DNA from: Granulicoccus phenolivorans DSM 17626 = NBRC 107789 = JCM 15570
GTDB lineage: Bacteria > Actinomycetota > Actinomycetes > Propionibacteriales > Propionibacteriaceae
DNA: 64,000 bases
NCBI RefSeq assembly: GCF_000423085.1
Contig: NZ_AUHH01000008.1
Location: forward strand, 62,001 to 126,000
Direction of reading: 5' to 3'
The translations under genes and the position numbers were made by a program. Below the pieces are notes generated by a model. The model made no database searches, was not told the DNA's origin, and worked only from the letters and a program-made list of their open reading frames with translations. Of the stretch, positions 817 through 18,211 are shown piece by piece (position 1 is the stretch's first letter; each line of letters opens with the position of its first letter).

Positions 817-3402
817 ATGACGACTGCGCCTGCTGCCGATTCCCGCGTGCCCGACAAGCCCAAACTCGAGGGCCTGGAGGACAAGTGGGCGACGAATTGG
901 GCCGCCGACCGGACGTACGCGTTCGTCCGGCCGCAGTCGCGCGAGCAGGTCTTCTCGATCGACACTCCCCCGCCGACGGTGTCCGGGTCGTTGCACGTGG
1001 GGCACGTGTTCTCCTACACCCATGCCGACCTGGTCGCTCGCTATCAGCGGATGACCGGCAAGCAGGTGTTCTACCCGATGGGCTGGGACGACAACGGCCT
1101 GCCGACCGAGCGCCGGGTGCAGAACTACTTCGGGGTCCGGTGTGATCCGTCGATCCCCTACGACCCCGATTTCCAGCCGCCGGCCAAGCCGGACCCGAAG
1201 CGGCAGGTGCCGATCAGCCGCCGCAACTTCGTGGCGCTGTGCCTGGAGTTGACCGCGGTCGACGAGCAGGCCTTCGAGGATCTGTGGCGCCATGTCGGCC
1301 TGTCGGTCGACTGGGACCACCTGTACACCACGATCTCCCCGGACACCCAGGCGGTCACCCAGCGCGCATTTCTGCGGAACCGGGCCCGGGGCGAGGCGTA
1401 CCTGTCCGAGGCGCCGACGATGTGGGACGTGACCTTCCAGACCGCGGTCGCCCAGGCCGAGCTGGAGGCTCGGGACTACCCGGGCTTCTACCACAAGCTG
1501 GCCTTCGCGCTGACCGAGCCGGTCGATGCCGGCGGCGCCGACGTGCCGTGGGCCGACGGGAACGTGGTCATCGAGACCACCCGTCCCGAACTGCTGGCCG
1601 CCTGTGGCGCCCTGATCGCGCACCCCGACGATGAGCGCTACCGGGCGCTGATCGGCAAGACCGTCACCACGCCGGTGTTCGGGGTCGAGGTGCCCGTGCT
1701 GGCCCACCCGAACGCCGAGATGGACAAGGGCTCGGGGATCGCCATGTGCTGTACCTTCGGCGACCTCACCGACGTCACCTGGTGGCGCGAGCTGCAGTTG
1801 CCGATGCGGACGATCATCCAGCGCAACGGCCGGATCGTGCAGGACACCCCGGACTGGATTCCGAACGCCGCCGCCTTCACCGAGATCGCCGGCAAGACGA
1901 CCTTCTCCGCCCGGGAGACGATGGTCGAACTGCTCCGCGACGCCGGCGCCCTGCTGGCCGAACCGGAGGCCACCCAGCGCAAGGCGAACTTCTACGAAAA
2001 GGGCGACAAGCCGCTGGAGATCATCTCGACCCGGCAGTGGTACATCGCCAACGGGGGCCGCGACGACGCCCTGAAGCAGAAGCTGCTCGAGCGCGGCGAT
2101 GAGATCGCCTTCGTGCCCGAGCACATGAAGTACCGCTACAAGAACTGGGTCGAGGGCCTCAACGGGGACTGGCTGATCTCGCGCCAGCGCTTCTTCGGCG
2201 TGCCCTTCCCGGTCTGGTACACCCTGGACGCCGACGGGGAGCCGGACTACCAGAATCCGATCTTCGCCGCCGAGGAGTCGCTGCCGGTCGACCCGTCCAG
2301 CGATGTCCCGCCGGGGTACGCCGAGGCGCAGCGCGGGGTGCCCGGCGGCTTCATCGGCGACCCGGACGTGATGGACACCTGGGCGACCTCCTCGCTCACT
2401 CCGGAAATCGTGACCGGCTGGGGCCGTGACGAGGAGCTGTTCAGCCTGACCTTCCCGATGGATCTGGCGCCCCAGGCCCACGACATCATCCGGACCTGGC
2501 TGTTCTCCCGGGTGGTGCGCTCGCACTTCGAGTTCGACCGGGTGCCCTGGAAGCGGGCCACGATCTCCGGCTTCGTGGTCGATCCCGACCGCAAGAAGAT
2601 GTCGAAGTCCAAGGGCAATGTGGTCGTGCCGACCGAGATCCTGGAGAAGTTCGGTGCCGACGCGGTGCGCTGGCGGGCGGCGATGGCCCGGCCGGGCACC
2701 GACTCCCCCTTCGACGAATCCCAGATGAAGGTCGGCCGCCGCCTGGCGATGAAGGTGCTGAACGCCTCGAAGTTCGTCCTCGGCATGGGAGCCCGCCCCG
2801 GCGCGGTGTCCAACCCGGCCGACGTGGCGCTGCTGGAGCGGCTGCACCTGGTCGTCGAGCAGGCCACCACCGCGTTCGAGGCCTACGACTACACCGCCGC
2901 GCTGGAGGCGACCGAGACCTTCTTCTGGTCCTTCTGCGATGACTACCTGGAGTTGGTGAAGGAGCGGGCGTACGGGGCGCAGGGCCCGGACGGGGCCCAG
3001 TCGGCGCAGGCCGCGCTGGCGACCACGCTGGACGTGGTGCTGCGGCTGTTCGCTCCGTTCCTGCCGTTCGTCACCGAGGAGGTGTGGTCGTGGTGGCAGG
3101 AGGGATCGATCCACCGGGCCCCGTGGCCGACCGTGGCCGACCTGCCGCAGGGGCCGGCGCTGCTGCTGGGTGAGGTGTCCCAGGCCCTGATCGGGATCCG
3201 GGGGGCGAAGTCGAATGCGAAGGCGTCGATGAAGACCGAGGTGGCCCGCGCCGAGTTCTCCGGACCGGCCGCGGCGCTGTCCCGGTTGCGCTCGATCGAG
3301 GCCGATCTGCGCGCGGTGGGCCGGATCACCGGTCAGGTCGAGTGGGCCGAATCCGAGAGTGAATCGATCGATGTGGCTGTGGAGTTGGTCACACAGGCTT
3401 AA
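817..3402 (+). CDS. valS: Valyl-tRNA synthetase
   Basis: Class I aminoacyl-tRNA synthetase that charges tRNA-Val. The 861-residue protein carries the HIGH-type motif as HVGH at residues 60-63 and the KMSKS loop near residue 594. The catalytic Rossmann core is interrupted by an editing domain (around residues 230-390) and followed by an anticodon-binding helical domain from about residue 680. The sequence around [18 protein letters not shown] resembles the shorter ValRS lineage seen in actinobacteria rather than the longer E. coli-like form. The ATG at 817 gives the expected N-terminus. A small unknown gene begins eight bases after the stop and may be co-transcribed. Confidence 0.96.
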
Positions 3403-3410
3403 TCTGGAAC

Positions 3411-3758
3411 GTGTCCTCCGACGTCGCCACCGAGAATTCATTGCGCTTCAGCGCGAGCGCTCCGCGCCGTCTCACGCTTGCGGAGCACGATCAGTTGACC
3501 GGGATCGCCGAGCGATTCAACCAGTCCGCCGCCGAGGAGAACCGGTTGGAGTTCGACGGCCCGGATGTGTTGCCACTGGGCGTACGCCTGGCCGGGTCGA
3601 TCCATCTCCCGAACTCCTCCGAACACTGGAGTCAGGTGGTGGATCACTGGCTGGACGCCCTGGCCCAGATGCGGCTGGCCATTCCCGACCTGACCTGGGA
3701 CGTCCAGCTCGGCCGGGTCCCGTATCGCTGGAGCGGGACGCACTGGCACTGGAAATAA
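3411..3758 (+). CDS. Hypothetical protein, 115 residues
   Basis: Not recognised. The frame starts with GTG eight bases after the valS stop, so it is probably translated from the valS message; no strong ribosome-binding site is visible. The protein is soluble-looking, rich in Trp and His near the C-terminus (YRWSGTHWHW), and has no signal peptide, membrane segment or cysteine. Codon use matches its neighbours (third position mostly G/C), which supports coding. Function cannot be inferred from position alone. Confidence 0.7.
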   Translation: MSSDVATENSLRFSASAPRRLTLAEHDQLTGIAERFNQSAAEENRLEFDGPDVLPLGVRLAGSIHLPNSSEHWSQVVDHWLDALAQMRLAIPDLTWDVQLGRVPYRWSGTHWHWK

Positions 3759-4796
<1,038 letters not shown>

Positions 4797-4805
4797 GGCG
4801 TCGGG

Positions 4806-6098
4806 TCAGGCGCTCTTGGAGCGCCGTTCGCGCTTGACCAGCTTGGACCGCGGGATCAGCTCGGGGTCCGCCCCGTCCCGGACGACGGAGCCGGTGACCA
4901 CAACCTGACCGATCTCGTCCTCGCTGGGCACGTCGTACATGACGCTGAGCAGGGACTCCTCCAGGATCGCCCGCAGGCCGCGGGCGCCGGTCCCCCGGGC
5001 CAGGGCCATGTCGGCGACCGCTTCGATCGCGTCGTCGGTGAACTCCAGATCGACCCCGTCGAGTTCGAACAGCTTGCGGAACTGCTTGACCAGCGCGTTG
5101 CGCGGCTCGACCAGGATCCGCATCAGCGCATCGCGATCCAGCGGGGTCACCGTGGAGATCATCGGCAGACGGCCGATGAACTCGGGGATCAGGCCGTACT
5201 TGACCAGGTCCTCGGGCCGGACCAGGGACAGCGGATCGACCGACTCGACCTGGCGCGATTCCAGGTCGTTGTTGAACCCGATCGGACGCTTCCCGACCCG
5301 GGAATCGATGATGTGGTCCAGGCCGGCGAACGCGCCCCCGACGATGAACAGCACATTGGTCGTGTCGATCTGGATGAAGTCCTGATGCGGGTGCTTGCGC
5401 CCGCCCTGCGGCGGAACACTCGCGGTGGTGCCCTCGAGGATCTTCAACAGCGCCTGCTGTACGCCCTCCCCGGACACGTCACGGGTGATCGAGGGGTTCT
5501 CCGACTTGCGGGCCACCTTGTCGATCTCGTCGATGTAGATGATGCCGGTCTCGGCCTTCTTCACGTCGAAATCCGCGGCCTGGATCAGCTTGAGCAGGAT
5601 GTTCTCGACGTCCTCACCGACGTAGCCGGCTTCGGTCAGCGCGGTGGCATCGGCCATGGCGAACGGCACGTTCAGCATCCGCGCGAGGGTCTGGGCCAGG
5701 TAGGTCTTGCCGCAGCCGGTCGGGCCGATCAGCAGGATGTTGGACTTGCCGAGTTCGACGTTGTCCTCGTCGGCGGCCCGACGGGCGGTCGGCTGAGACT
5801 GGGCCTGGACCCGCTTGTAGTGGTTGTAGACCGCCACCGACAGCGCCTTCTTGGCCGAATCCTGCCCGATCACGTACTGATCCAGGAACTCCCGGATCTG
5901 GCGCGGCTTGGGCAGTTCGTCGAGCAGGCCGACATCGGAGGTCTCGGAGAACTCTTCCTCGATGATCTCGTTGCACAGGTCGATGCACTCGTCGCAGATG
6001 TACACGTGCGGGCCGGCGATCAGTTTGCGGACCTGCTTCTGGGATTTACCACAGAACGAGCACTTCAGCAGGTCACCGGTCTCCCCGATGCGTGCCAT
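4806..6098 (-). CDS. clpX: ATP-dependent Clp protease ATP-binding subunit ClpX
   Basis: Hexameric AAA+ unfoldase that recognises tagged substrates and feeds them to ClpP. The 430-residue protein has the N-terminal zinc-binding domain (Cys13, Cys16, Cys35, Cys38), Walker A GPTGCGKT at 125-132, Walker [10 protein letters not shown], and the AAA+ C-terminal small domain. The substrate-binding pore loop region and the GRLP sensor region (EFIGRLP) are visible. The ATG at 6098 yields the canonical MARIGE start. It lies downstream of clpP1-clpP2 on the same strand but is separated by 186 bases containing a hairpin, so it probably has its own promoter. Confidence 0.97.
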
Positions 6099-6249
6099 TG
6101 GTGTTCCCCTTCACTGCTGTAATTCTCGTCTGCCCCGGACCCCGGGGGTCCTGGAGACCATTGTGCGCCCGGCGAAATCTGGGCTGTCCGCCACCCTAAC
6201 CCGGGTCGGGTCAGGATCGGTTGACCCGGGCTGCGGTGGCGACACGATA

Positions 6250-6274
6250 CCTCCCCGACGCGGGGCCGGGGAGG
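6250..6274 (-). terminator. Hairpin downstream of clpP2
   Basis: CCTCCCCG and CGGGGAGG pair perfectly over 8 bases around a 9-base loop, 11 bases past the clpP2 stop. There is no clear U-tract, as is common in high-GC actinobacteria; it may end or attenuate transcription before clpX. Confidence 0.5.
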
Positions 6275-6284
6275 CATCTTCGAT

Positions 6285-6968
6285 TCAGTTCTGCAGTTCC
6301 TTGAGGCTGGTGAGCACGTCGTCGACGATGCCGTACTCCTTCGCCTCGGCCGCAGTGAGGTACTTGTCGCGGTCGACATCCTTGCTGACCTGCTCGATGG
6401 TCTGCCCGGTCGCGTCGGCCAGCATCTGCTCCATCAGGGCCCGGATCCGCATGATCTCCTTGGCCTGGATCTCCAGGTCGGAGGACTGCCCGTAGGAGGG
6501 CTGGCCCATCGACGGCTGGTGGATCAGGATGGTGGAGTTCGGCAGCGCGAGCCGCTTGCCCTTCGCACCGGCGGCCAACAGCACCGCGGCCGCGGAGGCA
6601 GCCATGCCCAGGCAGATGGTCTGCACCTCCGGCTTGATGTAGTTCATCGTGTCGTAGATCGCCGTCATGGCCGAGAACGAACCGCCCGGAGAGTTGATGT
6701 ACATGCTGATCTGACGATCGGAGTCCATCGACTGCAGGCAGAGCAGCTCGGCCATGATCGCGTTGGCCAACTCGTCGGTGACCGGGTCACCGAGGAAGAT
6801 GATGCGATCCTCGAAGAGCTTCGCGTACGGGTCGATCCGGCGCAGGCCGTAGGAGGTGCGCTCCTCCCACTGCGGCAGGTAGTGCGCCGCCCGCGGGGCG
6901 GGCACGCCGGCCCGCATCATCTGCTCAGCGTTGAAGGCAGCCATGCTGTCGAAGTTCATATTCTGCAT
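6285..6968 (-). CDS. clpP2: ATP-dependent Clp protease proteolytic subunit 2
   Basis: Serine peptidase subunit of the Clp protease. The 227-residue protein has the catalytic Ser125 in GMAASAAA, His150 in IHQPS, and the Asp in the DRDKYLTAAEA region. In actinobacteria ClpP1 and ClpP2 form stacked heptameric rings of different subunits. The start at 6968 (MQNMNFDS) leaves two bases after the clpP1 stop; an alternative ATG lies at 6959. The frame stays open upstream through clpP1, but that part is antisense-like reading and not protein. The pair forms one operon with clpP1 first. Confidence 0.96.
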   Translation of the reverse strand: MQNMNFDSMAAFNAEQMMRAGVPAPRAAHYLPQWEERTSYGLRRIDPYAKLFEDRIIFLGDPVTDELANAIMAELLCLQSMDSDRQISMYINSPGGSFSAMTAIYDTMNYIKPEVQTICLGMAASAAAVLLAAGAKGKRLALPNSTILIHQPSMGQPSYGQSSDLEIQAKEIMRIRALMEQMLADATGQTIEQVSKDVDRDKYLTAAEAKEYGIVDDVLTSLKELQN

Positions 6969-6970
6969 CC

Positions 6971-7591
6971 TCACTGATTCGGCGAATCGGTCTTGATCTG
7001 CGACGCCGACGTGTAGACGTGGTCGATGAAGCCGTACTCCAGCGCCTGCTCCGCGGTGAACCAACGGTCCCGATCGGAATCGGCGTTGATCTGCTCCACG
7101 GTCTGGCCGGTGTGCTGCGCGATCAGCCCGGCCATCACCTTCTTGATGTGCAGGGACTGCTCGGCCTGGATCCGGATGTCGGAGGCGGTGCCGCCCAGAC
7201 CGCCGGAAGGCTGGTGCATCATGATCCGGCTGTGCGGCAGCGCGTAGCGCTTGCCCTTGGTGCCGGCGCTGAGCAGGAACTGCCCCATCGAGGCAGCCAG
7301 CCCCATGGCCACGGTCGCGACGTCGTTGGAGATCCACTCCATCGTGTCGAAGATGGCCATGCCCGAGTCGACCGAACCGCCCGGGGAGTTGATGTAGAGG
7401 TAGATGTCGCGCTGCGGGTCTTCGGCATTGAGCAGCAGCATCTGCGCGCAGATGGCGTTCGCGTTCTCGTCGGTGACCTCGGAGCCCAGGAAGATGATCC
7501 GGTTGGCCAGCAGCTGATGGTAGACGTTGTCGTTCAGACCGCCGACGCCCGGAGTCGCCGCGGCCCGGATCTCGGTACCAGGTGTGTTCAC
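6971..7591 (-). CDS. clpP1: ATP-dependent Clp protease proteolytic subunit 1
   Basis: First subunit of the heteromeric Clp protease. The catalytic Ser is in GLAASMGQ (residue 101 from this start), His in MMHQPSGG (126), and Asp in the [13 protein letters not shown] stretch. I use the GTG at 7591, giving 206 residues beginning VNTPGTEI; upstream in-frame GTG (7612) and TTG (7621) codons would add 7 or 10 residues, and the ribosome-binding evidence does not decide between them. It is the first gene of a two-gene operon with clpP2, spaced by two bases. Both subunits keep all three catalytic residues. Confidence 0.94.
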
Positions 7592-7812
7592 GACTCCGAA
7601 CCTACCCGGCACCTCCGACAAAACCTGAGGGTTCCGGGCGTTGTTCGCTCACGGCGCACCCTGGGCCGTCCGCCCCACCCCTGGCCACCGGTCCGGCGTA
7701 CGCTGCTCTAGGCTCCACCGTGACCAGGTGCAGCACACCCGACAGCATGGTCGGACGGATCGGCTTCGGGCCCGGCCGCTCGTGCGCACCCCCAGCAGGA
7801 GGAGCTGACCCC

Positions 7813-8814
7813 ATGATTCGTATTGGCTACAAAGCCTCGGCCGAGCAGTTCGCCCCGCGCGAGCTCGCTGACTTCGCGGTCCGGGCCGAGGAACTCGGCT
7901 TCGACTCCGCGACGATCTCCGACCACTTCCAGCCCTGGCGGCATCAGGGCGGGCATGCGCCGAACTCGTTGATCTGGATGTCCCACGTCGGCGCGCGCAC
8001 CGAACGGCTGATCCTGGGCACCTCGGTGCTCACCCCCACCTTCCGGTACAACCCGGCGGTGATCGCGCAGATGTTCGCCACCATGGGGTGCCTGTACCCG
8101 GGCCGGATCATGCTCGGGGTCGGTACCGGCGAAGCCCTGAACGAGATCGCGGTCGGGCTGACCGACTGGCCGGATTTCAAGGGCCGCTTCGCCCGGCTGC
8201 GGGAGTCGGTCCGGCTGATGCGCCGGCTGTGGACCGAGGATCGGGTCACCTTCGAGGGCGACTACTTCCGGACCGTCGACGCGAGCATCTACGACCGGCC
8301 CGACCAGCCGATCCCGGTCTACATCGCCGCCGGTGGCCCGACCGTGGCCAAGTACGCCGGTCGCCAGGGTGACGGGTTCATCTGCACCTCGGGCAAGGGG
8401 GTCGAGCTCTACCGCGACCAGCTGATGCCCGCCGTCCGCGAGGGCCTGGAGCTGAACGGACGCAGCGAGGACGCCATCGACAAGATGATCGAGATCAAGC
8501 TGTCCTACGACCCCGATCCGCAGCGGGCGCTGGAGAACTGCCGGTTCTGGGCGCCGTTGTCGCTGTCGAAGGAGCAGAAGCACGACATCACCGACCCCGA
8601 GGAGATGGAGGCCGCCGCCGACGCCCTGCCGATCGAGCAGGTCGCCAAGCGTTGGATCGTGGCGTCCACCCCCGAGGCCGCCATCGAGCAGATCAAGTTC
8701 TACACCGATCTGGGCTTCAACCACCTGGTCTTCCACGGCCCCGGCCACGATCAGGAGCGGTTCCTGTCGACCTTTGCCGAGCAGGTCGTCCCCGGAATCC
8801 GCGAACTGGGCTGA
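7813..8814 (+). CDS. fgd: F420-dependent glucose-6-phosphate dehydrogenase
   Basis: Luciferase-like (beta/alpha)8 enzyme that oxidises glucose 6-phosphate to 6-phosphogluconolactone and reduces coenzyme F420. The 333-residue protein matches mycobacterial Fgd1 closely over its length: [14 protein letters not shown] at the start, [15 protein letters not shown] with the proposed catalytic His (residue 38) and Trp, [11 protein letters not shown] with the conserved Glu, and the C-terminal [17 protein letters not shown]. The ATG at 7813 has GGAGG upstream; the frame is open further up but that stretch reads poorly. It implies the host makes F420. No F420 biosynthesis genes are in the window. Confidence 0.93.
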
Positions 8815-8826
8815 CCCCGGGAAGCG

Positions 8827-8864
8827 ACACGGTGGCCGACCCCCTCAGGGATCGGCCACCGTGT
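8827..8864. terminator. Bidirectional terminator between fgd and tig
   Basis: CACGGTGGCCGA pairs perfectly with TCGGCCACCGTG around a 12-base loop, and one more A-T pair extends the stem to 13 bases. It starts 13 bases after the fgd stop and faces the convergent tig gene, so it can serve both. On the plus strand it runs into GTGTGTTC, a weak T-containing tail. Confidence 0.75.
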
Positions 8865-8925
8865 GTGTTCAGTGCCGGGTGGTCAGCGCCGAGTGTTCAG
8901 CGCCCGGTCGGTGCGTCGCCGGGGC

Positions 8926-10386
8926 TCACTTTGCTTCGTCGGTCTCCTCGGCGGCAGCCTCGTCGGTGGTGACCTCGGCGGCAGCAGCCTCCTCGGCGGC
9001 GTCCTCGTCGTCACCCTCGGCCTCGGCGTCGGCGAGTTCGGCCGGGTCGGCGTACGAACCGTCGGACTGCAGCTTCTCCAGGTCGATCTCGTTGCCGTCG
9101 GTGTCGACGACGGTGGCGGTCTCGACCACCAGCGCGAGCGCCTTGCCGCGACGGATCTCGGCCATCCACTCAGCCATGTGGTTGTGTTCCATCATGTGCT
9201 GGGCCTCCTGCTCCGGGCTGGTACCCGACTGCTGGGCCTTGCGCAGCAGGAGCTGGGTCAGGTCGTTCTGGTCGACCCCGACCTCGCGATCGTCGGCGAC
9301 CGAGTCGAGCAGGATCTGCGCCTTCAGGGCGTCCTTGGCGCGGGCGTCGATGTCGGCCCAGAACTCCTCGGCGGTCTGCTCCTCCTCGTCGGACTGCTCG
9401 AGGTACTGGTCCAGGGTCAGCCCGGCCTGAGCCAGTTGCTGGGTGATCTGCTGGTGCCGCATTTCGATCTCGTTGGCCAGCAGCTTCTCCGGCACGTCGA
9501 TGTCGATCTTGGCGATGATCTCCTCCAGGACCTTGTCCCGGGCGGTGGCGGCCTGCTCCAGCCGGGCCTGCCGCAGCAGGTTGTCGGCCAGGTCGGCGCG
9601 CATCTCCTCGACGGTCTCGAACTCCGAGACCATCTGGGCGAACTCGTCGTCCAGCTCGGGCAGGTCCTGCTCCTGGACCTTGGTGACGGTGACCTTGATG
9701 TCGGCACGCTCGCCGCGCAGCGAACCGCCGACCAGCTCGGAGTTGAACTCGGCCGACTCACCGGCGGACAGGCCGGTCACAGCCTCGTCCAGGCCGTCGA
9801 TCATGCCGCCGGCGCCGAGCTTGTAGGAGATGTCCTTGGCGGTGGCCTCCTCCAGTTCCTCACCGTTCATCGACCCGACCAGGTCGACCACGATCACATC
9901 GCCCTCGGCGGCGGGGCGCTCGACCTCGCGGACCGAGGCGAACCGCTCCCGCAGGACCTTGATCTGCTCGTCGACGGCCTCATCGGAGACCTCGAGGGTG
10001 TCGACCTCGACCTTGACGTCGCTGAGGTCGGGCAGTTCGATGTCGGGGCGCACGTCCAGTTCGGCGGTGAACTCGACCAGTTGGTTGTCCTCCAGCTTGG
10101 TGACCTCGATCTCCGGCTCACCCAGCGGGTTGAGCTCGTTCTCGGTCACGGCCTTGCTGTAGAGCTCCGGCAGCGCATCGTTGATCGCCTGCTGCAGCAC
10201 CATCTCGCGACCGAATCGCTGATCGATGACCAGCGGCGGCACCTTGCCGGCGCGGAAGCCGGGGATGTTCACCTGGCTGGCAATTTCCTTGTACGCCTTG
10301 TCGACACTGGGCTTGAGTTCCGCGAACGGCACCTCGATGGTGATCTTGGCCCGCGACGGGCTCAGCTTCTCAACAGTGCTAGGCAA
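8926..10386 (-). CDS. tig: Trigger factor, ribosome-associated chaperone and prolyl isomerase
   Basis: Binds the ribosome exit tunnel and folds nascent chains. The 486-residue protein begins STVEKLSPSRAKI after the initiator, contains the ribosome-docking signature GFRAGKVPP near residues 43-51, a central FKBP-like domain (DVIVVDLVG onward) and a long helical C-terminal domain. I choose the TTG at 10386, preceded by GGGAGAGACC, because it gives the family's usual N-terminus; the frame stays open further upstream to 10443. The last 40 or so residues are an acidic Ala/Glu/Asp tail, common in actinobacterial trigger factors. It lies close to the clp genes, as in many bacteria. Confidence 0.95.
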   Translation of the reverse strand: MPSTVEKLSPSRAKITIEVPFAELKPSVDKAYKEIASQVNIPGFRAGKVPPLVIDQRFGREMVLQQAINDALPELYSKAVTENELNPLGEPEIEVTKLEDNQLVEFTAELDVRPDIELPDLSDVKVEVDTLEVSDEAVDEQIKVLRERFASVREVERPAAEGDVIVVDLVGSMNGEELEEATAKDISYKLGAGGMIDGLDEAVTGLSAGESAEFNSELVGGSLRGERADIKVTVTKVQEQDLPELDDEFAQMVSEFETVEEMRADLADNLLRQARLEQAATARDKVLEEIIAKIDIDVPEKLLANEIEMRHQQITQQLAQAGLTLDQYLEQSDEEEQTAEEFWADIDARAKDALKAQILLDSVADDREVGVDQNDLTQLLLRKAQQSGTSPEQEAQHMMEHNHMAEWMAEIRRGKALALVVETATVVDTDGNEIDLEKLQSDGSYADPAELADAEAEGDDEDAAEEAAAAEVTTDEAAAEETDEAK

Positions 10387-10570
10387 GGTGGTCTCTCCCT
10401 TGGGGATTCTGGCCGACAGTCGGCCTACGGCATGTGGCGCCACGTTGACGCATACCGGCTGATTCTATCCACACCGGTTCACTGCGCATCAAGACCGACA
10501 CCGCTCGGTACGCTGTCCCCGCATTTTTGGCCCGTACGCCTCCGCGCCGGGCCCACGGGAAGGGACTCAG

Positions 10571-11872
10571 ATGCACTGGACACTCCACGGTGACGGCCGC
10601 AGTGCGGGCGCCGGCACCATCGTGCTGCCCGAGGAACGGCTGACCTGGCCGCGCACCATCGGGTTCGGGATGCAGCACGTGGTCGCCATGTTCGGGGCGA
10701 CGTTCCTGGTCCCCATCCTGACCGGGTTCCCGCCGTCGACGACGCTGTTCTTCTCCGGCATCGGCACCATGCTGTTCCTGATCATCACGCAGAACCGGCT
10801 GCCGTCCTACCTGGGCTCCTCCTTCGCGTTCCTGGCTCCGATCGGGGCGGCGACCGCGCAGGGCGGGCCCGGTGCCGCGCTGGCCGGGGTGGTGCTCACC
10901 GGCGCGCTGTTGCTCCTGGTCGGGGTGATCGTTCACCTCACCGGATCGGGCTGGGTGGACAAGCTGATGCCGCCGGTGGTGGCCGGCGCGATCATCGCGC
11001 TGATCGGGTTCAACCTGGCTCCGGCGGCCAAGGCGAACTTCGAGAAGTCCCCGGTCACCGCGTTCGTCACCCTGCTGGCGGTGATCCTGACCGGGGTGAT
11101 CTTCCGCGGCCTGATCGGTCGGCTGTCGATCGCGGTCGGCGTCCTGGTCGGCTACGTCTGTGCGGTGATCCGCGGTGAGGTCGACTTCTCCGCGGTCGGC
11201 GAGGCGGCCTGGATCGGGCTGCCCCAGTTCCATTTCCCCAGCTTCGACTCCGCCCACCTGCCGGTCTACCTGATGTTCCTGCCGGTGGTGCTGGCCCTGG
11301 TCGCGGAGAACGTCGGGCACGTGAAGGGGGTCGGACAGTTGACCGGCCGGGATCTGGGGCCGCTGACCGGGCGCGCGCTGATGGCCGACGGGGCCTCGAC
11401 GATGCTGGCCGGGTCCTTCGGTGGCTCTCCCACCACCACCTATGGCGAGAACATCGGCGTGATGGCCGCCACCCGGGTGTTCTCCACCGCGGCGTACTGG
11501 GTCGCGGCGATCACCGCGGTGCTGCTGGGCCTGTGCCCGAAGATCGGTGCGGTGATCTTCACCATCCCGGCCGGGGTGCTGGGCGGGGTGACCACGGCCC
11601 TGTACGGCCTGATCGGGATCATCGGGGTGCGGATGTGGGTGGAGAACCGGGTCGACTTCGGTCGGCCCAAGAATCAGCTGACCGCGGCGGTCGCGCTGAT
11701 CATGGGCATCGCCGACTTCACCATCCATCTGGGCAATCTCACCTTCGGCGGGATCATTCTCGGCACCGTGGCCGCGATCGCGACCTATCACCTGATGTCG
11801 TTCTGCGGCCGGGTCTTTCGGACCGATGTGACCGAGGAGCCGGTCGTGGCCGCCGGGGCTGAAAGGGACTGA
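10571..11872 (+). CDS. uraA: Uracil permease, NCS2 family
   Basis: Membrane symporter for uracil or a related nucleobase. The 433-residue protein has the GFGMQHVVAMFGATFLVP signature of UraA/NCS2 proteins in its first membrane segment and about 12-14 hydrophobic helices. It also carries the family's TM10 motif region with GGSPTTTYGENIGVMAATRVFS. The ATG at 10571 has AAGGGAC upstream. UraA is often controlled with pyrimidine genes; here the pyr operon lies 37 kb away and no PyrR site is recognisable in the short leader. The substrate is inferred from family likeness and could be another pyrimidine or a purine. Confidence 0.9.
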   Translation: MHWTLHGDGRSAGAGTIVLPEERLTWPRTIGFGMQHVVAMFGATFLVPILTGFPPSTTLFFSGIGTMLFLIITQNRLPSYLGSSFAFLAPIGAATAQGGPGAALAGVVLTGALLLLVGVIVHLTGSGWVDKLMPPVVAGAIIALIGFNLAPAAKANFEKSPVTAFVTLLAVILTGVIFRGLIGRLSIAVGVLVGYVCAVIRGEVDFSAVGEAAWIGLPQFHFPSFDSAHLPVYLMFLPVVLALVAENVGHVKGVGQLTGRDLGPLTGRALMADGASTMLAGSFGGSPTTTYGENIGVMAATRVFSTAAYWVAAITAVLLGLCPKIGAVIFTIPAGVLGGVTTALYGLIGIIGVRMWVENRVDFGRPKNQLTAAVALIMGIADFTIHLGNLTFGGIILGTVAAIATYHLMSFCGRVFRTDVTEEPVVAAGAERD

Positions 11873-12450
11873 GGCCAACGGCCAGTCCCGTCGCGGTGCC
11901 GGGTCAACCCGCGCAGCTTCCGCCAGCCAGCGACAGCTATGCCGACCCGAGCCCGTCCCGCGACAGAAAAATCCCCCAGTACGCTTTCCGCACCCGAACC
12001 GACCACACCGCGACACCAAGGCTCAACCCGCAGGCACTGCAACACCCGCGGGAGCCACCCGCTGTCGCCGAATCGCCCGGGCTATCGCACGAAGCCCCCG
12101 CACTGGCGTTCCTGTCGCGGGACGCTCCGGCGCCGACATCCCCCTGGCGGCCTCCCCCGTACGTGATCTCCGTCTCGGCGAGCCGTGCGCCGACATTCCA
12201 TCGCGGGAACGCAGCGCCCGGGCGTCCTGCGACGGCTCCGAACATCCTGCGGCTGGAACCCTTTCCCGCACCTGCTGCAGCACCCGCGAGGACCCTTCTG
12301 CCGTCGCCGAATCGCTCGGGCTGTCGCACGAAGCCCCCGCGCTGACGTTCCTATCGCGGGAAGCCCCAGCTCCGAATTTCCTATCGCAGCAAGCCCCGAC
12401 CCCGAACTTCCCATCGCGGGAAGCCCCTTGCCCGAGGAGCCGGTCCCACC
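11873..12450. repeat. Non-coding block of 30-base periodic repeats
   Basis: No gene is supported in this 578-base gap. The motif TCGCGGGAAGCCCC or a close variant begins at 12324, 12354, 12384 and 12414, an exact 30-base period; variants with the same period occur at 12085 and 12115, and a further TCGCGGGAA at 12201. A larger copy is also present: 12062-12122 and 12301-12361 match at 55 of 61 bases by my count. Units commonly read TTCCYATCGCGGGAA, a short imperfect inverted repeat. Open frames through it on both strands give Ala/Gly/Arg/Ser decapeptide repeats and look spurious. Confidence 0.75.
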
Positions 12451-13161
12451 TCAGCTGAAGCGCGCCTGCTCGATCCGCTCGATCGAGTCCAGCTTGTGCA
12501 CCCGCTCGTCGTGCCCGATCTGGCGGAACAGGTCGGCCTGGGAGGCGTAGGTGCCGTAGACCGTGGTCAGGTCGGAGTCGTACGGGGTCGTCTCGAGGTG
12601 CGGATTCTCCGCGACGAAGCCCATGTACTCGTGCTCGGCGTGGTCCTCGAAGTCGGCGTTGAGCTTGTAGGACTCCTCGGGCTTGAGCACGAACAGCAAC
12701 CAGGAGACCGCGTAGTAGACCAGCGCGATGGCCTGCGGGATCCAGAAGAAGTAGATCTTGTTCTCCTTCTTCCCCGACTCGGCGATCAGCTCCTCCAGGA
12801 TCAGCAGGTGCCACTGCTCGTTGTCCTGCTGGTGGCGCGATTCGCGGACCCGCTCGGCGATCCGGCGCGCCAGCCCGGTCTTGTCGTACACGTGGGTGAT
12901 CGCGATGTAGGCGACCTGCTCCCAGGCCTGGTACGGCACCCGGGCGACCAGTTCCAGGACCTTGAACTTCGACAGGGTGCGCTTCTTGCCGTAGAGCAGG
13001 TCGAAGGTGGTGAACAGGACCTTGGCCGGGAGCCCGTACGCGCGGCGCGGCGCAGCCAGGGTTTCTTCTTGAGCGGCACGCAGTTCCGCGGGGGCCAGTT
13101 TCGGCGGACCCTCCTGGAGCGCTACCGATGCAGGGGTGTTGTCGTCGTTGTTTCCACGCAC
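12451..13161 (-). CDS. Alternative-oxidase-like di-iron protein
   Basis: Predicted quinol oxidase of the alternative oxidase family, which passes electrons from quinol to oxygen without pumping protons. In the 236-residue protein the four family motifs appear in order: VLELVARVPY (Glu70, matching the LET motif), DNEQWHLL (Glu115, His118), DFEDHAEHEY (Glu172, matching LEEEA) and IGHDERVHKLDS (Glu219, His222). Two hydrophobic stretches flank residues 138-160. I choose the GTG at 13161, with GAGG eight bases upstream; the frame stays open far beyond it. The gene stands alone between a repeat block and a convergently unrelated gene. Di-iron ligands are all present; actual quinol oxidase activity is inferred. 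Confidence 0.82.
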   Translation of the reverse strand: MRGNNDDNTPASVALQEGPPKLAPAELRAAQEETLAAPRRAYGLPAKVLFTTFDLLYGKKRTLSKFKVLELVARVPYQAWEQVAYIAITHVYDKTGLARRIAERVRESRHQQDNEQWHLLILEELIAESGKKENKIYFFWIPQAIALVYYAVSWLLFVLKPEESYKLNADFEDHAEHEYMGFVAENPHLETTPYDSDLTTVYGTYASQADLFRQIGHDERVHKLDSIERIEQARFS

Positions 13162-15221: not shown

Positions 15222-15569
15222 TCAGGCCTGTAGGTTCACGGTGTGGTCGAGCACGCCCCAACCGACCTCGAACTTGGCCAGACCGAGCGTCCGGCTGTCG
15301 GTGCTGCCGGTGTTCCAGCACCAGTCGAAGGCCCGCGAGGGAAGCGGGGTGTAGAACGGTCCGCCCCACGATCGGGTGCGACGTTCGTTCTCGGCGAAGA
15401 AGAAGTACTTCCCGTCGCCGGCCCACCCGGAGAACACCTTCACGGTGCCGTTGGGGCCGATCCGATACCAGCCCTTCTTCGACCACTGCACGGCTCCGCA
15501 GCCGGGGCTGTAATAGGCGTAGGCAACGAAGACGGTGTCGCCCGTGGCGTTGCGAAAATAGAGTCCCAT
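15222..15569 (-). CDS. DUF1036-like small protein, last gene of the M6 protease cassette
   Basis: A 115-residue protein of unknown function. The pattern LYFRNATGDTVFVAYAYY, then GWYRIGPNGTVKVFSG and YFFFAENE, resembles the DUF1036 family, which has a beta-sandwich-like pattern of short strands rich in aromatic residues. The start ATG at 15569 overlaps the TGA of the upstream gene (TGATG), so translation is probably coupled. No signal peptide is visible. It closes a four-gene minus-strand operon with the M6 protease. Family likeness is from pattern memory and should be treated as moderate. Confidence 0.75.
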   Translation of the reverse strand: MGLYFRNATGDTVFVAYAYYSPGCGAVQWSKKGWYRIGPNGTVKVFSGWAGDGKYFFFAENERRTRSWGGPFYTPLPSRAFDWCWNTGSTDSRTLGLAKFEVGWGVLDHTVNLQA

Positions 15570-15931
15570 CACTTGCTCGCATCCGGGAAGGTGGTCGGCG
15601 GGTCGGCCGGCAACTGGGTGGAGGCCTCGCCGACCGGGCGCGCGTCGGCGCGGACGTCGGTCTGAGTGGCCGTGAAATCGGTGGGGAGATCCACCGGCGT
15701 GGCCTCCGGCGCGTCAGCATCGCGGGTAACCGGTGCGGAGGCGTCGTGGGCCAGCAACTGGTCCAGGGGGAGCGGCGACGGAGCATCGTCGGCCGCCGGC
15801 ATCGCCGGGGTCAACGACGGTGCCGCCGGGGCCTCGTCGGCGCCGCCGGACCCCGCCGCTGCGAGTCGGTCGAGGGGCATCGGTGCGGGAGCTTCCGCGG
15901 AGCCGTACGGCGACATGTCTGGAGCGGACAT
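15569..15931 (-). CDS. Ala/Pro-rich 120-residue protein of the M6 protease cassette
   Basis: Not recognised. The protein is low in hydrophobic residues and rich in Ala, Pro and Asp, so it is probably disordered. It has two related segments, PAPMPLDRLAAA near residue 16 and PSPLPLDQLLAH near residue 51, sharing the pattern P-x-P-L-D-[RQ]-L. The ATG at 15931 is preceded by GAAAGG. It starts 11 bases after the 70-residue protein and its stop overlaps the DUF1036-like start. There is no signal peptide. The repeated PLD-L motif may be a docking site for a partner; that is inference. Confidence 0.7.
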   Translation of the reverse strand: MSAPDMSPYGSAEAPAPMPLDRLAAAGSGGADEAPAAPSLTPAMPAADDAPSPLPLDQLLAHDASAPVTRDADAPEATPVDLPTDFTATQTDVRADARPVGEASTQLPADPPTTFPDASK

Positions 15932-15942
15932 GGTGTGACCTT

Positions 15943-16155
15943 TCAGAGGTAGGCCTGGGTGATGTTCTTGGCCGCGTCGAGCACGACGAAGGCCTGTTTC
16001 CCGTTGGCGCGGGCCAACGAGAGCAGCAGATGCACATTGGTGACCCCGTCGGCGGCGTTCGGCAGGATCTTGTGCCAGGCGTTGTCGGAGGCAAGGTGGG
16101 CCCATGCGTTCTGGGCGTGGTGGGTGGTGAAGACCTGGTTGACCTGGGTCCACAT
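15943..16155 (-). CDS. 70-residue protein equal to a free-standing copy of the M6 protease C-terminal module
   Basis: Function unknown. The protein aligns along nearly its full length with the last 62 or so residues of the adjacent protease: about 30 identical positions, including TTHHAQNAW / ATHHAQNGW, NAADGVTN / GAADGVTN and the shared C-terminal QAYL. It has no signal peptide or membrane segment. The ATG at 16155 lies 28 bases after the protease stop. A stand-alone copy next to a protease bearing the same module suggests a shared partner, a decoy or a co-assembly role; none is proven. Confidence 0.78.
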   Translation of the reverse strand: MWTQVNQVFTTHHAQNAWAHLASDNAWHKILPNAADGVTNVHLLLSLARANGKQAFVVLDAAKNITQAYL

Positions 16156-16183
16156 GGGTCGTCCTTCGTCAGTTGGGTGGGGA

Positions 16184-17941
16184 TCAGAGATAGGCCTGGA
16201 ACACCGTGGCCGGATCGGCCCGGACGGTGACCTTGAGGTTTCGCGCCTTCGCCAGAGCGAACGTGGTCAGCATGTTGGTGACGCCATCGGCGGCACCGGT
16301 CTGGATCTTGCGCCAGCCCAGCCCGGACAGGCTGACCCAACCGTTCTGCGCATGGTGGGTGGCGAAGACCATGTCGACACCGAGGTTGGCGTACGTCTGG
16401 GCCCCGGTGGCCCGGGTCCGCACGGTCATGCTCGCGCCGACCGCGGAGATCTGGTCGATGTCGAGGCCGGAGGTACTCGCGTCCCACCAGGCGCTGTTGG
16501 GCGCGGTTCCCGGCCCGAATGCTGCCGCGGCGCCGCCGTACAGGTCCTCGGCGTCACCTCGATTGACGCGGCGTTCGAGGTCGAACCGGTTGTCGGCCTG
16601 CTCCAGCGAGCATTCGTAGTGCTGCGCCGGTGTCATCTGTTCGAAGCTGTTGTTGCCCTTGACATCGCAGTGCCAAATGGCGATGCCGGCGTCCGGTAGC
16701 GATGCGTCGCGACCGGTCTGCTGGCGGTTCTCCAGGATGAAGTACTCCTGGGCATTGCGGGCGTGCAGCGCGAAATCGTTCTTGCCCGACTCCAGCGTGG
16801 CGGTCATCCCGCTGGTGAGCGTCGTCACCCGGGAGGCCCAGCCGGCGGCATGCTTCAGGTACGCCTCGACCTGGGTGGGGTTCTTGTCCGATCCGCCGAA
16901 GCACATCAGCGAGTAGTCTCCGATGCCGTTGCCGACATTGACCGCGTCGTAGTCGTACAGATCGGGGAAGTCACAGATCATGTGACCGTTCTCGTGACAG
17001 AACGTGCGCAACGTCAGTTGGTTGCCGAGGTCGGTGATCTGATAGTCGGAGAATCTGCGCCCGCCGGGCACCGCGTAGGAGGTGGCCAGCGACCAGGAGT
17101 GCGGCCACAACCCCTGGGACCAGGCGTTGGAGCGCACCCCGGCGTAGAAGACGCTCAGCGCCCGGATGAAGCCGGCGTAATCGGCGGTCAGAGCGGAGAA
17201 GTCGAACCCTCCCGCGACCAGTGAATCCAGTGCCTCTCGGATCAGTTCCTGCGCCCGGGTCCCGTAGGCCACCGCTGGATCGGTGTAATAGGTGCGCGGA
17301 TGCTTGGCCCGATAGTACGCCGCCACATGATTCTTGTAGCGCAATTTACCGTCGGAAACGTCGCGGTAATAATCGAAAGCGGAGCCATTGTTCCCGAACC
17401 CGGAATAGCCTGGCTTGTTGCAGAAATCATCCACTTCCTGGCGCGAGATGGTTGCCGGAAAATCGGAAAAATCGACCAGCAGGACCAGGCCCAGATAGTC
17501 GCCGGTGGTGGTGGCCGGCGGCGGTGCGGCCCCGGGCCCCTCGGTCGCTTCGGGGCCTGCCGAGGGCAGTCCCGCGGGCGGTCGGGCGATTCGTCGTTCC
17601 AGGTTCTCGGCGCGCCGCTGCATCCAGCGCGGGACGGGACCGAGGGCGTCCTGGGCCGCTTCGGCGCTGCGCATACTGGCTGCCCGGGTGATTCGAGCGT
17701 GTCTGGGCAGGCCGAGGGTCTGCGGATCTGCCGCCCCGACCCGGACTCCGCTGGGGACCAGGGACTCGCCGTCCTCGGCCAGCCGGGCGTATTCGTAGTA
17801 GCCGTCTGCGGCTTGGGTGACGGTAAAACCATCAAGGGTTTCGAACACCGCCACAAATTGGTTCCCCCATCCCCGGAGCATCAGTTCCGAACTGTCCGGA
17901 TTCAGGATGGTGAATATTTCGCCCTCGAATGGAGTGGGCAC
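16184..17941 (-). CDS. M6-family (immune inhibitor A-like) metalloprotease
   Basis: Zinc endopeptidase, 585 residues. HENGH near residue 317, followed by DFPDLYDYD, is the M6 metal site. The N-terminal 80 residues match the usual M6 lead-in (FTILNPDSSELMLRGWGNQF, then ETLDGFTVTQ). A Pro/Ala-rich linker follows near residues 110-150, then the catalytic domain, and a C-terminal module from about residue 524 to the end that recurs as the next gene's whole product. The GTG at 17941 has GGGAGG five bases upstream. Unlike typical secreted M6 proteases it has no visible signal peptide, so either it acts inside the cell or leaves by another route. It heads a four-gene operon. Confidence 0.9.
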   Translation of the reverse strand: MPTPFEGEIFTILNPDSSELMLRGWGNQFVAVFETLDGFTVTQAADGYYEYARLAEDGESLVPSGVRVGAADPQTLGLPRHARITRAASMRSAEAAQDALGPVPRWMQRRAENLERRIARPPAGLPSAGPEATEGPGAAPPPATTTGDYLGLVLLVDFSDFPATISRQEVDDFCNKPGYSGFGNNGSAFDYYRDVSDGKLRYKNHVAAYYRAKHPRTYYTDPAVAYGTRAQELIREALDSLVAGGFDFSALTADYAGFIRALSVFYAGVRSNAWSQGLWPHSWSLATSYAVPGGRRFSDYQITDLGNQLTLRTFCHENGHMICDFPDLYDYDAVNVGNGIGDYSLMCFGGSDKNPTQVEAYLKHAAGWASRVTTLTSGMTATLESGKNDFALHARNAQEYFILENRQQTGRDASLPDAGIAIWHCDVKGNNSFEQMTPAQHYECSLEQADNRFDLERRVNRGDAEDLYGGAAAAFGPGTAPNSAWWDASTSGLDIDQISAVGASMTVRTRATGAQTYANLGVDMVFATHHAQNGWVSLSGLGWRKIQTGAADGVTNMLTTFALAKARNLKVTVRADPATVFQAYL

Positions 17942-18135: not shown

Positions 18136-18211
18136 TGGTCGGGGCGACAGGACTCGAACCTGCGGTCTCCTGCTCCCAAAGCAGGCGCGCTAGCCACTAC
18201 GCTACGCCCCG
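18136..18211 (-). tRNA. tRNA-Pro (TGG anticodon)
   Basis: On the minus strand the acceptor CGGGGCG pairs with CGCCCCG, the anticodon stem CCTGC/GCAGG encloses the loop TTTGGGA with anticodon TGG, and the T-arm contains GGTTCGAGTCC. The 3' CCA is encoded (18136-18138). It reads proline CCA codons. Confidence 0.95.

What the first reader, a model, noticed from the sequence alone, without database searches (positions are those of the whole stretch)
15222..17941. M6 metalloprotease cassette with no export signals and three unknown partners
Four minus-strand genes are tightly packed: an M6 protease with an intact HENGH site, a 70-residue protein, an Ala/Pro-rich 120-residue protein and a DUF1036-like protein, with gaps of 28 and 11 bases and one overlap. 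None shows a signal peptide, although M6 proteases are normally secreted. Tight linkage and lack of export suggest an intracellular or specially released proteolytic system. I know of no description of this gene set; that is memory, not a search.
Basis: partly seen in the sequence, partly recalled or inferred. Interest (0 to 1): 0.72.

Follow-up and report, generated by a model that had tools for sequence, protein, structure and literature searches.

The report
Leaderless protease with matching OB-fold partner
In some bacteria and archaea, unrelated proteases that carry no export signal all bear the same small tail domain and sit beside a gene for a free copy of that tail, which suggests a previously undescribed way of building protease complexes inside the cell.

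Summary
The four packed genes are real, and the M6 protease has no signal peptide: an in-frame stop lies nine codons upstream of its start. The '70-residue unknown' is a free copy of the protease's own C-terminal domain (48% identity). The domain has no Pfam family and is predicted as an OB fold (pLDDT 93). The same pairing, protease with OB tail plus free OB protein, occurs at all ten other loci found that could be checked: Arthrobacter, Glutamicibacter, Pseudonocardia, Ornithinimicrobium, an alphaproteobacterium, three archaeal genomes and a Deinococcus plasmid. The protease is M6, astacin or papain. In most, a third, disordered protein follows. In the window and four actinobacteria it carries the motif P-x-P-(L/M)-x-L-(D/E)-x-L; in two papain loci a disordered region is fused to the free OB domain. 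DUF1036 is not a conserved partner; some papain versions carry an I42 inhibitor instead. My best guess is a cytosolic complex in which the free OB protein forms an assembly that holds the protease through its OB tail, with the disordered protein as linker. Assembly is inferred, not shown. The module is rare and patchy, and no description was found in the open-access papers searched.

The parts
16184..17941 (-). Leaderless M6 metalloprotease (585 aa): N-terminal domain 1-70, M6 catalytic domain about 154-424 with HENGH 316-320, C-terminal OB-like domain about 520-585
16187..16396 (-). C-terminal OB-like domain of the protease (residues 516-585), 48% identical to the free 70-aa protein
15943..16155 (-). 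Free 70-aa OB-like domain protein (b-b-b-a-b-b, pLDDT 93.4)
15569..15931 (-). 120-aa Ala/Pro-rich, probably disordered protein with two PxP(L/M)xLDxL motifs (PAPMPLDRL, PSPLPLDQL)
   Evidence: disorder judged from composition
15222..15569 (-). DUF1036 protein (115 aa), accessory; not part of the conserved core in other OB loci

Best explanation
The cassette encodes a self-assembling cytosolic protease complex. SHOWN: the protease ends in a small OB-like domain, and the next gene makes the same domain alone. This pairing recurs with three protease families (M6, astacin M12A, papain C1A), none with an export signal. A third gene makes a low-complexity protein, in several species with repeats of one short proline/leucine motif; in two papain versions such a region is fused to the free OB domain. 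INFERRED: the free OB protein forms an oligomer or lattice, as the structurally similar inclusion protein CipA does. The protease joins it through its OB tail, and the disordered motif protein binds several OB units and links or caps the assembly. The cytosol is protected by keeping the protease held or inhibited; the I42 inhibitor gene beside the Deinococcus papain version fits this. The protease acts after a trigger, or after the cell bursts. Whether the target is the cell's own proteins (a suicide or conflict role, as nearby caspase-family genes hint) or outside prey is not determined.
For: Paralogy of tail and free protein: BLASTP 2e-14, alignment A5 of 21 domains. Pairing in 11 of 11 checkable loci including the window: L012-L017, L035, L048 and L049, L056. 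Families: M6, astacin and C1 by Pfam/NCBIfam. Actinobacterial free OB proteins form one clade (support 0.99) whether the protease is M6 or astacin, so one scaffold type serves two protease families. OB topology, with CipA Z 8.8 over 69 of 70 residues. CipA is an OB-fold protein that tetramerises and packs into crystals using an N-terminal arm (PMC9530169). Motif: 2 strict copies against 0.003 expected in shuffles for the window, 3 in Glutamicibacter, 3 in Pseudonocardia. Disordered region fused to OB in L049 and L056. I42 next to C1A in L056 and L057. No signal peptides.
Against: No oligomerisation, binding or inhibition was tested, and complexes could not be modelled. Foldseek gave no confident match (best E 0.32); Z near 8-9 is common for small OB barrels, so likeness to CipA may be only a shared common fold. 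The full-length M6 model failed (pLDDT 42). The strict motif was defined partly on the window and is absent or degenerate in the alphaproteobacterial and archaeal third genes. One locus (L048) has no recognisable third gene.
Confidence: 0.4

Rival explanations
1. The OB domain is a regulatory or inhibitory domain: the tail, or the free copy acting in trans, covers the active site or chaperones folding, and the free copy sets the activity threshold.
For: The propeptide of protein-glutaminase, itself an inhibitory pro-region, is among the best structural matches (3a54/3a56, Z 8.6, 66 aligned). A free copy next to a fused copy fits competition in trans. Leaderless proteases need a safety mechanism.
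Against: The same domain serves metallo- and cysteine proteases with unlike active sites, so direct active-site blocking by one conserved surface is awkward. The Deinococcus papain version already carries a dedicated I42 inhibitor. The tail is at the C-terminus, not the usual pro-peptide position.
Confidence: 0.2
2. The OB tail, free OB protein and disordered protein form a packaging or export route for leaderless enzymes (vesicle, lysis or an unknown exporter).
For: M6 and astacin families are usually extracellular. Pseudoalteromonas relatives of the window M6 have signal peptides. The module has the look of a delivery tag reused on three families.
Against: No exporter, lysis gene or secretion component recurs in the loci. 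eCIS sheath genes are absent from 8 of 9 host genomes. No phage link: no OB relative in phage records or viral contigs; the papain gave only weak hits that do not reach the OB tail, or just graze it.
Confidence: 0.18
3. Cell-suicide or anti-phage effector: the held protease is released on infection or stress and destroys the host cell's own proteins.
For: Caspase-family genes next to the papain version (L056) and a caspase-like and a phospholipase D-like gene next to a related leaderless astacin on a Pararhizobium plasmid. Patchy, mobile-looking distribution.
Against: No match to any PADLOC defence family at a meaningful E-value. No sensor or switch domain recurs. Caspase linkage in only one OB locus.
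Confidence: 0.2
4. Chance clustering of unrelated small genes beside an M6 gene.
For: The DUF1036 gene indeed does not travel with the other OB loci.
Against: The OB pairing repeats across two domains of life with purifying selection.
Confidence: 0.02

Closest known systems
CipA/CipB crystalline inclusion proteins of Photorhabdus
   Same: Small cytosolic OB-fold protein without export signal; CipA model match Z 8.8, 69 of 70 residues; CipA packs using an N-terminal arm, as two papain-type free OB proteins have a disordered N-terminal arm
   Different: No sequence similarity (7% identity over the alignment); CipA is not known to be paired with a protease carrying the same domain; assembly untested here
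AB5-type toxin B subunits (OB-fold ring subunits)
   Same: Fold class of the small subunit (Z 6.4-8.2); an enzyme plus a small OB subunit
   Different: Here the enzyme itself carries the OB domain, nothing has a signal peptide, there is no sequence relation, and no ring or receptor binding is known; the fold is common
Bacillus intracellular subtilisin Isp1 with its inhibitor IPI/BsuPI
   Same: Cytosolic protease kept in check by a small beta-sandwich partner (PMC3901451), as I42 beside the papain version
   Different: Unrelated families; no OB tail or free OB subunit
Immune inhibitor A type M6 proteases
   Same: Catalytic domain (TIGR03296)
   Different: Those are secreted; this one is leaderless and has the OB tail

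Membership tests
Peptidase family M6 | M6 catalytic domain with HExxH zinc motif | tested here: met
   TIGR03296 173 bits over cut-off 110.8; HENGH 316-320; PF05547 21.6 bits just under its cut-off of 22
Peptidase family M6 | Secretion signal (typical of members, not required for family membership) | tested here: not met
   In-frame stop nine codons upstream, no hydrophobic N-terminus; signal-bearing relatives used as controls
DUF1036 (PF06282) | Match over the curated cut-off | tested here: met
   27.3 bits against 23
OB fold | Five-stranded barrel with helix between strands 3 and 4 | tested here: met
   b-b-b-a-b-b, pLDDT 93.4; aligned to OB proteins at Z up to 9.2. Predicted, not solved
Cip crystalline inclusion proteins | Sequence relation and in-cell crystal formation | tested here: inconclusive
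   Fold similarity only; no sequence match to solved chains by profile; assembly not testable here
AB5 toxins | Secreted A subunit plus homologous B subunit forming a receptor-binding ring | tested here: not met
   No signal peptide on either part; no sequence match; only a common fold is shared
Extracellular contractile injection system cargo | Sheath genes in the same genome | tested here: not met
   PF04984 absent from 8 of 9 carrier genomes, including the window's; 3 of 14 control genomes ring
Known anti-phage defence systems (PADLOC) | Match to a defence protein model | tested here: not met
   Only HEC-04 at E 0.039 and 10.6 bits for the 70-aa protein

The most novel reading that the evidence does not exclude
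A general protease-scaffolding system shared by bacteria and archaea: one OB domain, free and as a tail, recruits interchangeable proteases of metallo- and cysteine type into a cytosolic particle, cross-linked by a short-linear-motif protein and kept safe by a protease-matched inhibitor.
Probability: 0.25. Interest if true: 0.85.

Novelty: categorically new. Interest (0 to 1): 0.64.

Why it matters
If true, cells build protease machines by attaching unrelated enzymes to one common small scaffold domain, a principle not known to me for leaderless M6, astacin and papain enzymes. It would explain why members of normally secreted protease families are sometimes made without an export signal, and give a small, testable, possibly engineerable enzyme-assembly system. 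The 70-aa domain appears to be a new protein family in its own right.

Tried and rejected
Missed signal peptide: rejected (stop nine codons upstream). Phage or prophage origin: no match to the M6 or astacin protein in phage records and no OB-domain relative in viral contigs; the papain gave three weak phage-record hits, mostly over its catalytic part, and one viral contig with a papain relative that does not reach the OB tail. eCIS cargo: rejected as a general route. DUF1036 as obligate M6 partner: rejected; it is rare (2 of 198 actinobacterial genomes) and in the other genome lies after a small acidic ORF without a protease in the 3 kb read. Full-length M6 fold: model too poor to use. The broad alignment A4 had no stretch conserved enough for a viral-contig scan. 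Sampling 396 Actinomycetota and 398 genomes of the alphaproteobacterial locus's phylum found only the known carriers. Sequence match of the OB domain to solved structures: none. I did not find a paper on the gene set in the open-access library; subscription papers were not searchable. Foldseek's failure to find a close fold is not evidence that the fold is new.

Full report
WHAT IS THERE. The first gene is an M6-type metalloprotease: TIGR03296 at 173 bits, far over its cut-off, and PF05547 at 21.6 bits, just under. It has no signal peptide and cannot have a missed one, since an in-frame stop lies nine codons before the GTG start. Its first residue lines up with the mature start of Pseudoalteromonas relatives that do carry a signal peptide. 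Those signal-bearing relatives serve as the positive control for the hydrophobicity check.

THE OVERLOOKED FEATURE. The 70-residue protein is a free copy of the last 66 residues of the protease itself: 32 of 66 identical, BLASTP 2e-14. Neither copy matches Pfam, NCBIfam, PHROGs, PADLOC or a solved structure at a meaningful level. In its own genome the domain occurs only in these two places.

THE MODULE ELSEWHERE. A scan of about 85,000 species with the two copies found six loci, each with the same pair: Arthrobacter sp. Leaf141 and Glutamicibacter protophormiae (M6), Pseudonocardia nigra and Ornithinimicrobium cerasi (astacin), an alphaproteobacterial MAG (astacin), and a Methanosarcinales MAG (M6). 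The last genome has a second locus with a papain-type protease bearing the domain, two free copies, and a small protein with four copies of a different repeat. Profile searches added two more genomes from the phylum of that archaeon, one M6 and one papain, and a tblastn search added a Deinococcus aetherius plasmid (papain, 52% identical over 99% of the query). In all eleven checkable loci, the window included, the protease with the tail is next to a free domain. The searches were made with the domain, so carriers were selected, but the pairing itself was not. A second Pseudonocardia protease (M6 with tail, L031/L051) begins a contig that overlaps the end of the first locus by about 89 bases with about 3 mismatches (read from the sequences). 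It is probably the same operon, with astacin and M6 sharing one free OB protein, but paralogous copies cannot be excluded.

THIRD PROTEIN. After the free OB gene most loci have a low-complexity Ala/Pro/Gly/acidic protein. In the actinobacteria it carries P-x-P-(L/M/I)-x-(L/M)-(D/E/G)-x-(L/M): two strict copies in the window against 0.003 per shuffle, three in Glutamicibacter, three strict (five loose) in Pseudonocardia, one each in Arthrobacter and Ornithinimicrobium. The motif was read off these same proteins, so the shuffle test shows only that it is not a product of composition. It is absent or degenerate in the alphaproteobacterial and archaeal versions. In two papain loci a disordered region and the free OB domain are one protein. 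L048 has no clear third gene.

ACCESSORY GENES VARY WITH THE PROTEASE. The Deinococcus papain version has a chagasin-type I42 inhibitor gene beside it (L056), and so does a related papain without the OB tail in Streptomyces canus (L057); PF09394 at 77 and 35 bits. Astacin versions have a YscW/YbaY-like protein nearby (L014 clear, L015 and L016 under the cut-off). The window has DUF1036. I42 is an established inhibitor of papain-type enzymes; that the other two are inhibitors is a guess by position only.

STRUCTURE. AlphaFold2 on 14 natural sequences gives a confident small barrel, b-b-b-a-b-b, pLDDT 93.4, pTM 0.80. Foldseek finds nothing convincing (best E 0.32). The second look by VIA-align places it among OB folds: SilF Z 9.2, CipA Z 8.8 over 69 of 70 residues, the propeptide of protein-glutaminase Z 8.6, toxin B subunits Z 6.4-8.2. 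Such Z values are not exceptional, and a shared fold shows no function. CipA is of interest because it is a leaderless cytosolic OB protein that tetramerises and crystallises with an N-terminal arm (PMC9530169).

EVOLUTION. M6 and OB genes are under purifying selection (window against Arthrobacter: M6 dN 0.16, dS 1.19; OB dN 0.12, dS 0.67; dS near 1 is near saturation, so the ratios are rough). On a small tree (FastTree, 23 short sequences) the actinobacterial free OB proteins form one clade (0.99) across M6 and astacin loci, while the M6 tails group separately (0.92). The pair is therefore not a recent duplication in each genome, and one type of free subunit accompanies two protease families. 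The module is rare: 1 of 396 Actinomycetota, 1 of 398 genomes in the alphaproteobacterial locus's phylum, and 4 of 295 in the archaeal locus's phylum, one of them a weak partial hit in an exported protein that is probably spurious. Each count includes the known carrier.

MECHANISM. Best-supported reading, 0.4: a cytosolic protease assembly held together by homotypic OB contacts. Shown steps: shared domain, pairing, lack of export signal, exchange of protease family. Inferred steps: oligomerisation, binding of the motif protein, inhibition until release. Rivals are an inhibitory or chaperone role of the OB domain (0.2), a cell-suicide or defence effector (0.2; this is about purpose and could be true together with the scaffold), and a packaging or export route (0.18).

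MEMBERSHIP AND NOVELTY. The catalytic domain belongs to M6; the module as a whole belongs to no family I could find. I rate it categorically new on the architecture, with the caution that subscription literature was not searchable and the function is untested.

Noticed in passing
L002 (same family as the window, G051), M6 gene 925-2886 minus: Another leaderless M6 protease with a long Lys/Asp coiled-coil-like C-terminal tail instead of the OB domain, ending near PFIGADLRPDLIG.
   Followed up: no
L036 (Pararhizobium gei plasmid) 4423-10759: YbaY-like protein, leaderless astacin, caspase-like protein and a phospholipase D-like protein in a row; no OB domain; looks like a related effector island.
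   Followed up: partly
L056 (Deinococcus aetherius plasmid) 6013-13116: Papain with OB tail, disordered-OB fusion, I42 inhibitor, then two caspase-family genes (the first with likely membrane spans).
   Followed up: partly
L059 1161-1824: DUF1036 gene in another actinobacterial genome directly after a small acidic ORF (LYRTLDADEVEALGP) that resembles the repeat of the archaeal third protein, with no protease in the 3 kb read.
   Followed up: partly
L011 (Phyllobacterium plasmid) 3101-6101: Leaderless heme-peroxidase-like gene (named from memory, not searched) followed by a leaderless M6 protease without the OB tail.
   Followed up: no
L012 8514-13436: Arthrobacter cassette is followed by a leaderless papain/hydrolase fusion and a leaderless subtilisin.
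   Followed up: partly
L013 9515-10345 and L015 8652-9566: BTAD/SARP-like transcription factor genes near two of the OB cassettes.
   Followed up: no
window 18136-18211: tRNA-Pro gene about 200 bases upstream of the M6 start, same strand; no repeat of 14 bases or more of the tRNA elsewhere in the window, so no sign of integration there.
   Followed up: yes
L054 (Priestia megaterium plasmid) 4955-9836: DUF1036-like gene near an M28 peptidase and another zinc metalloprotease, apparently leaderless.
   Followed up: no
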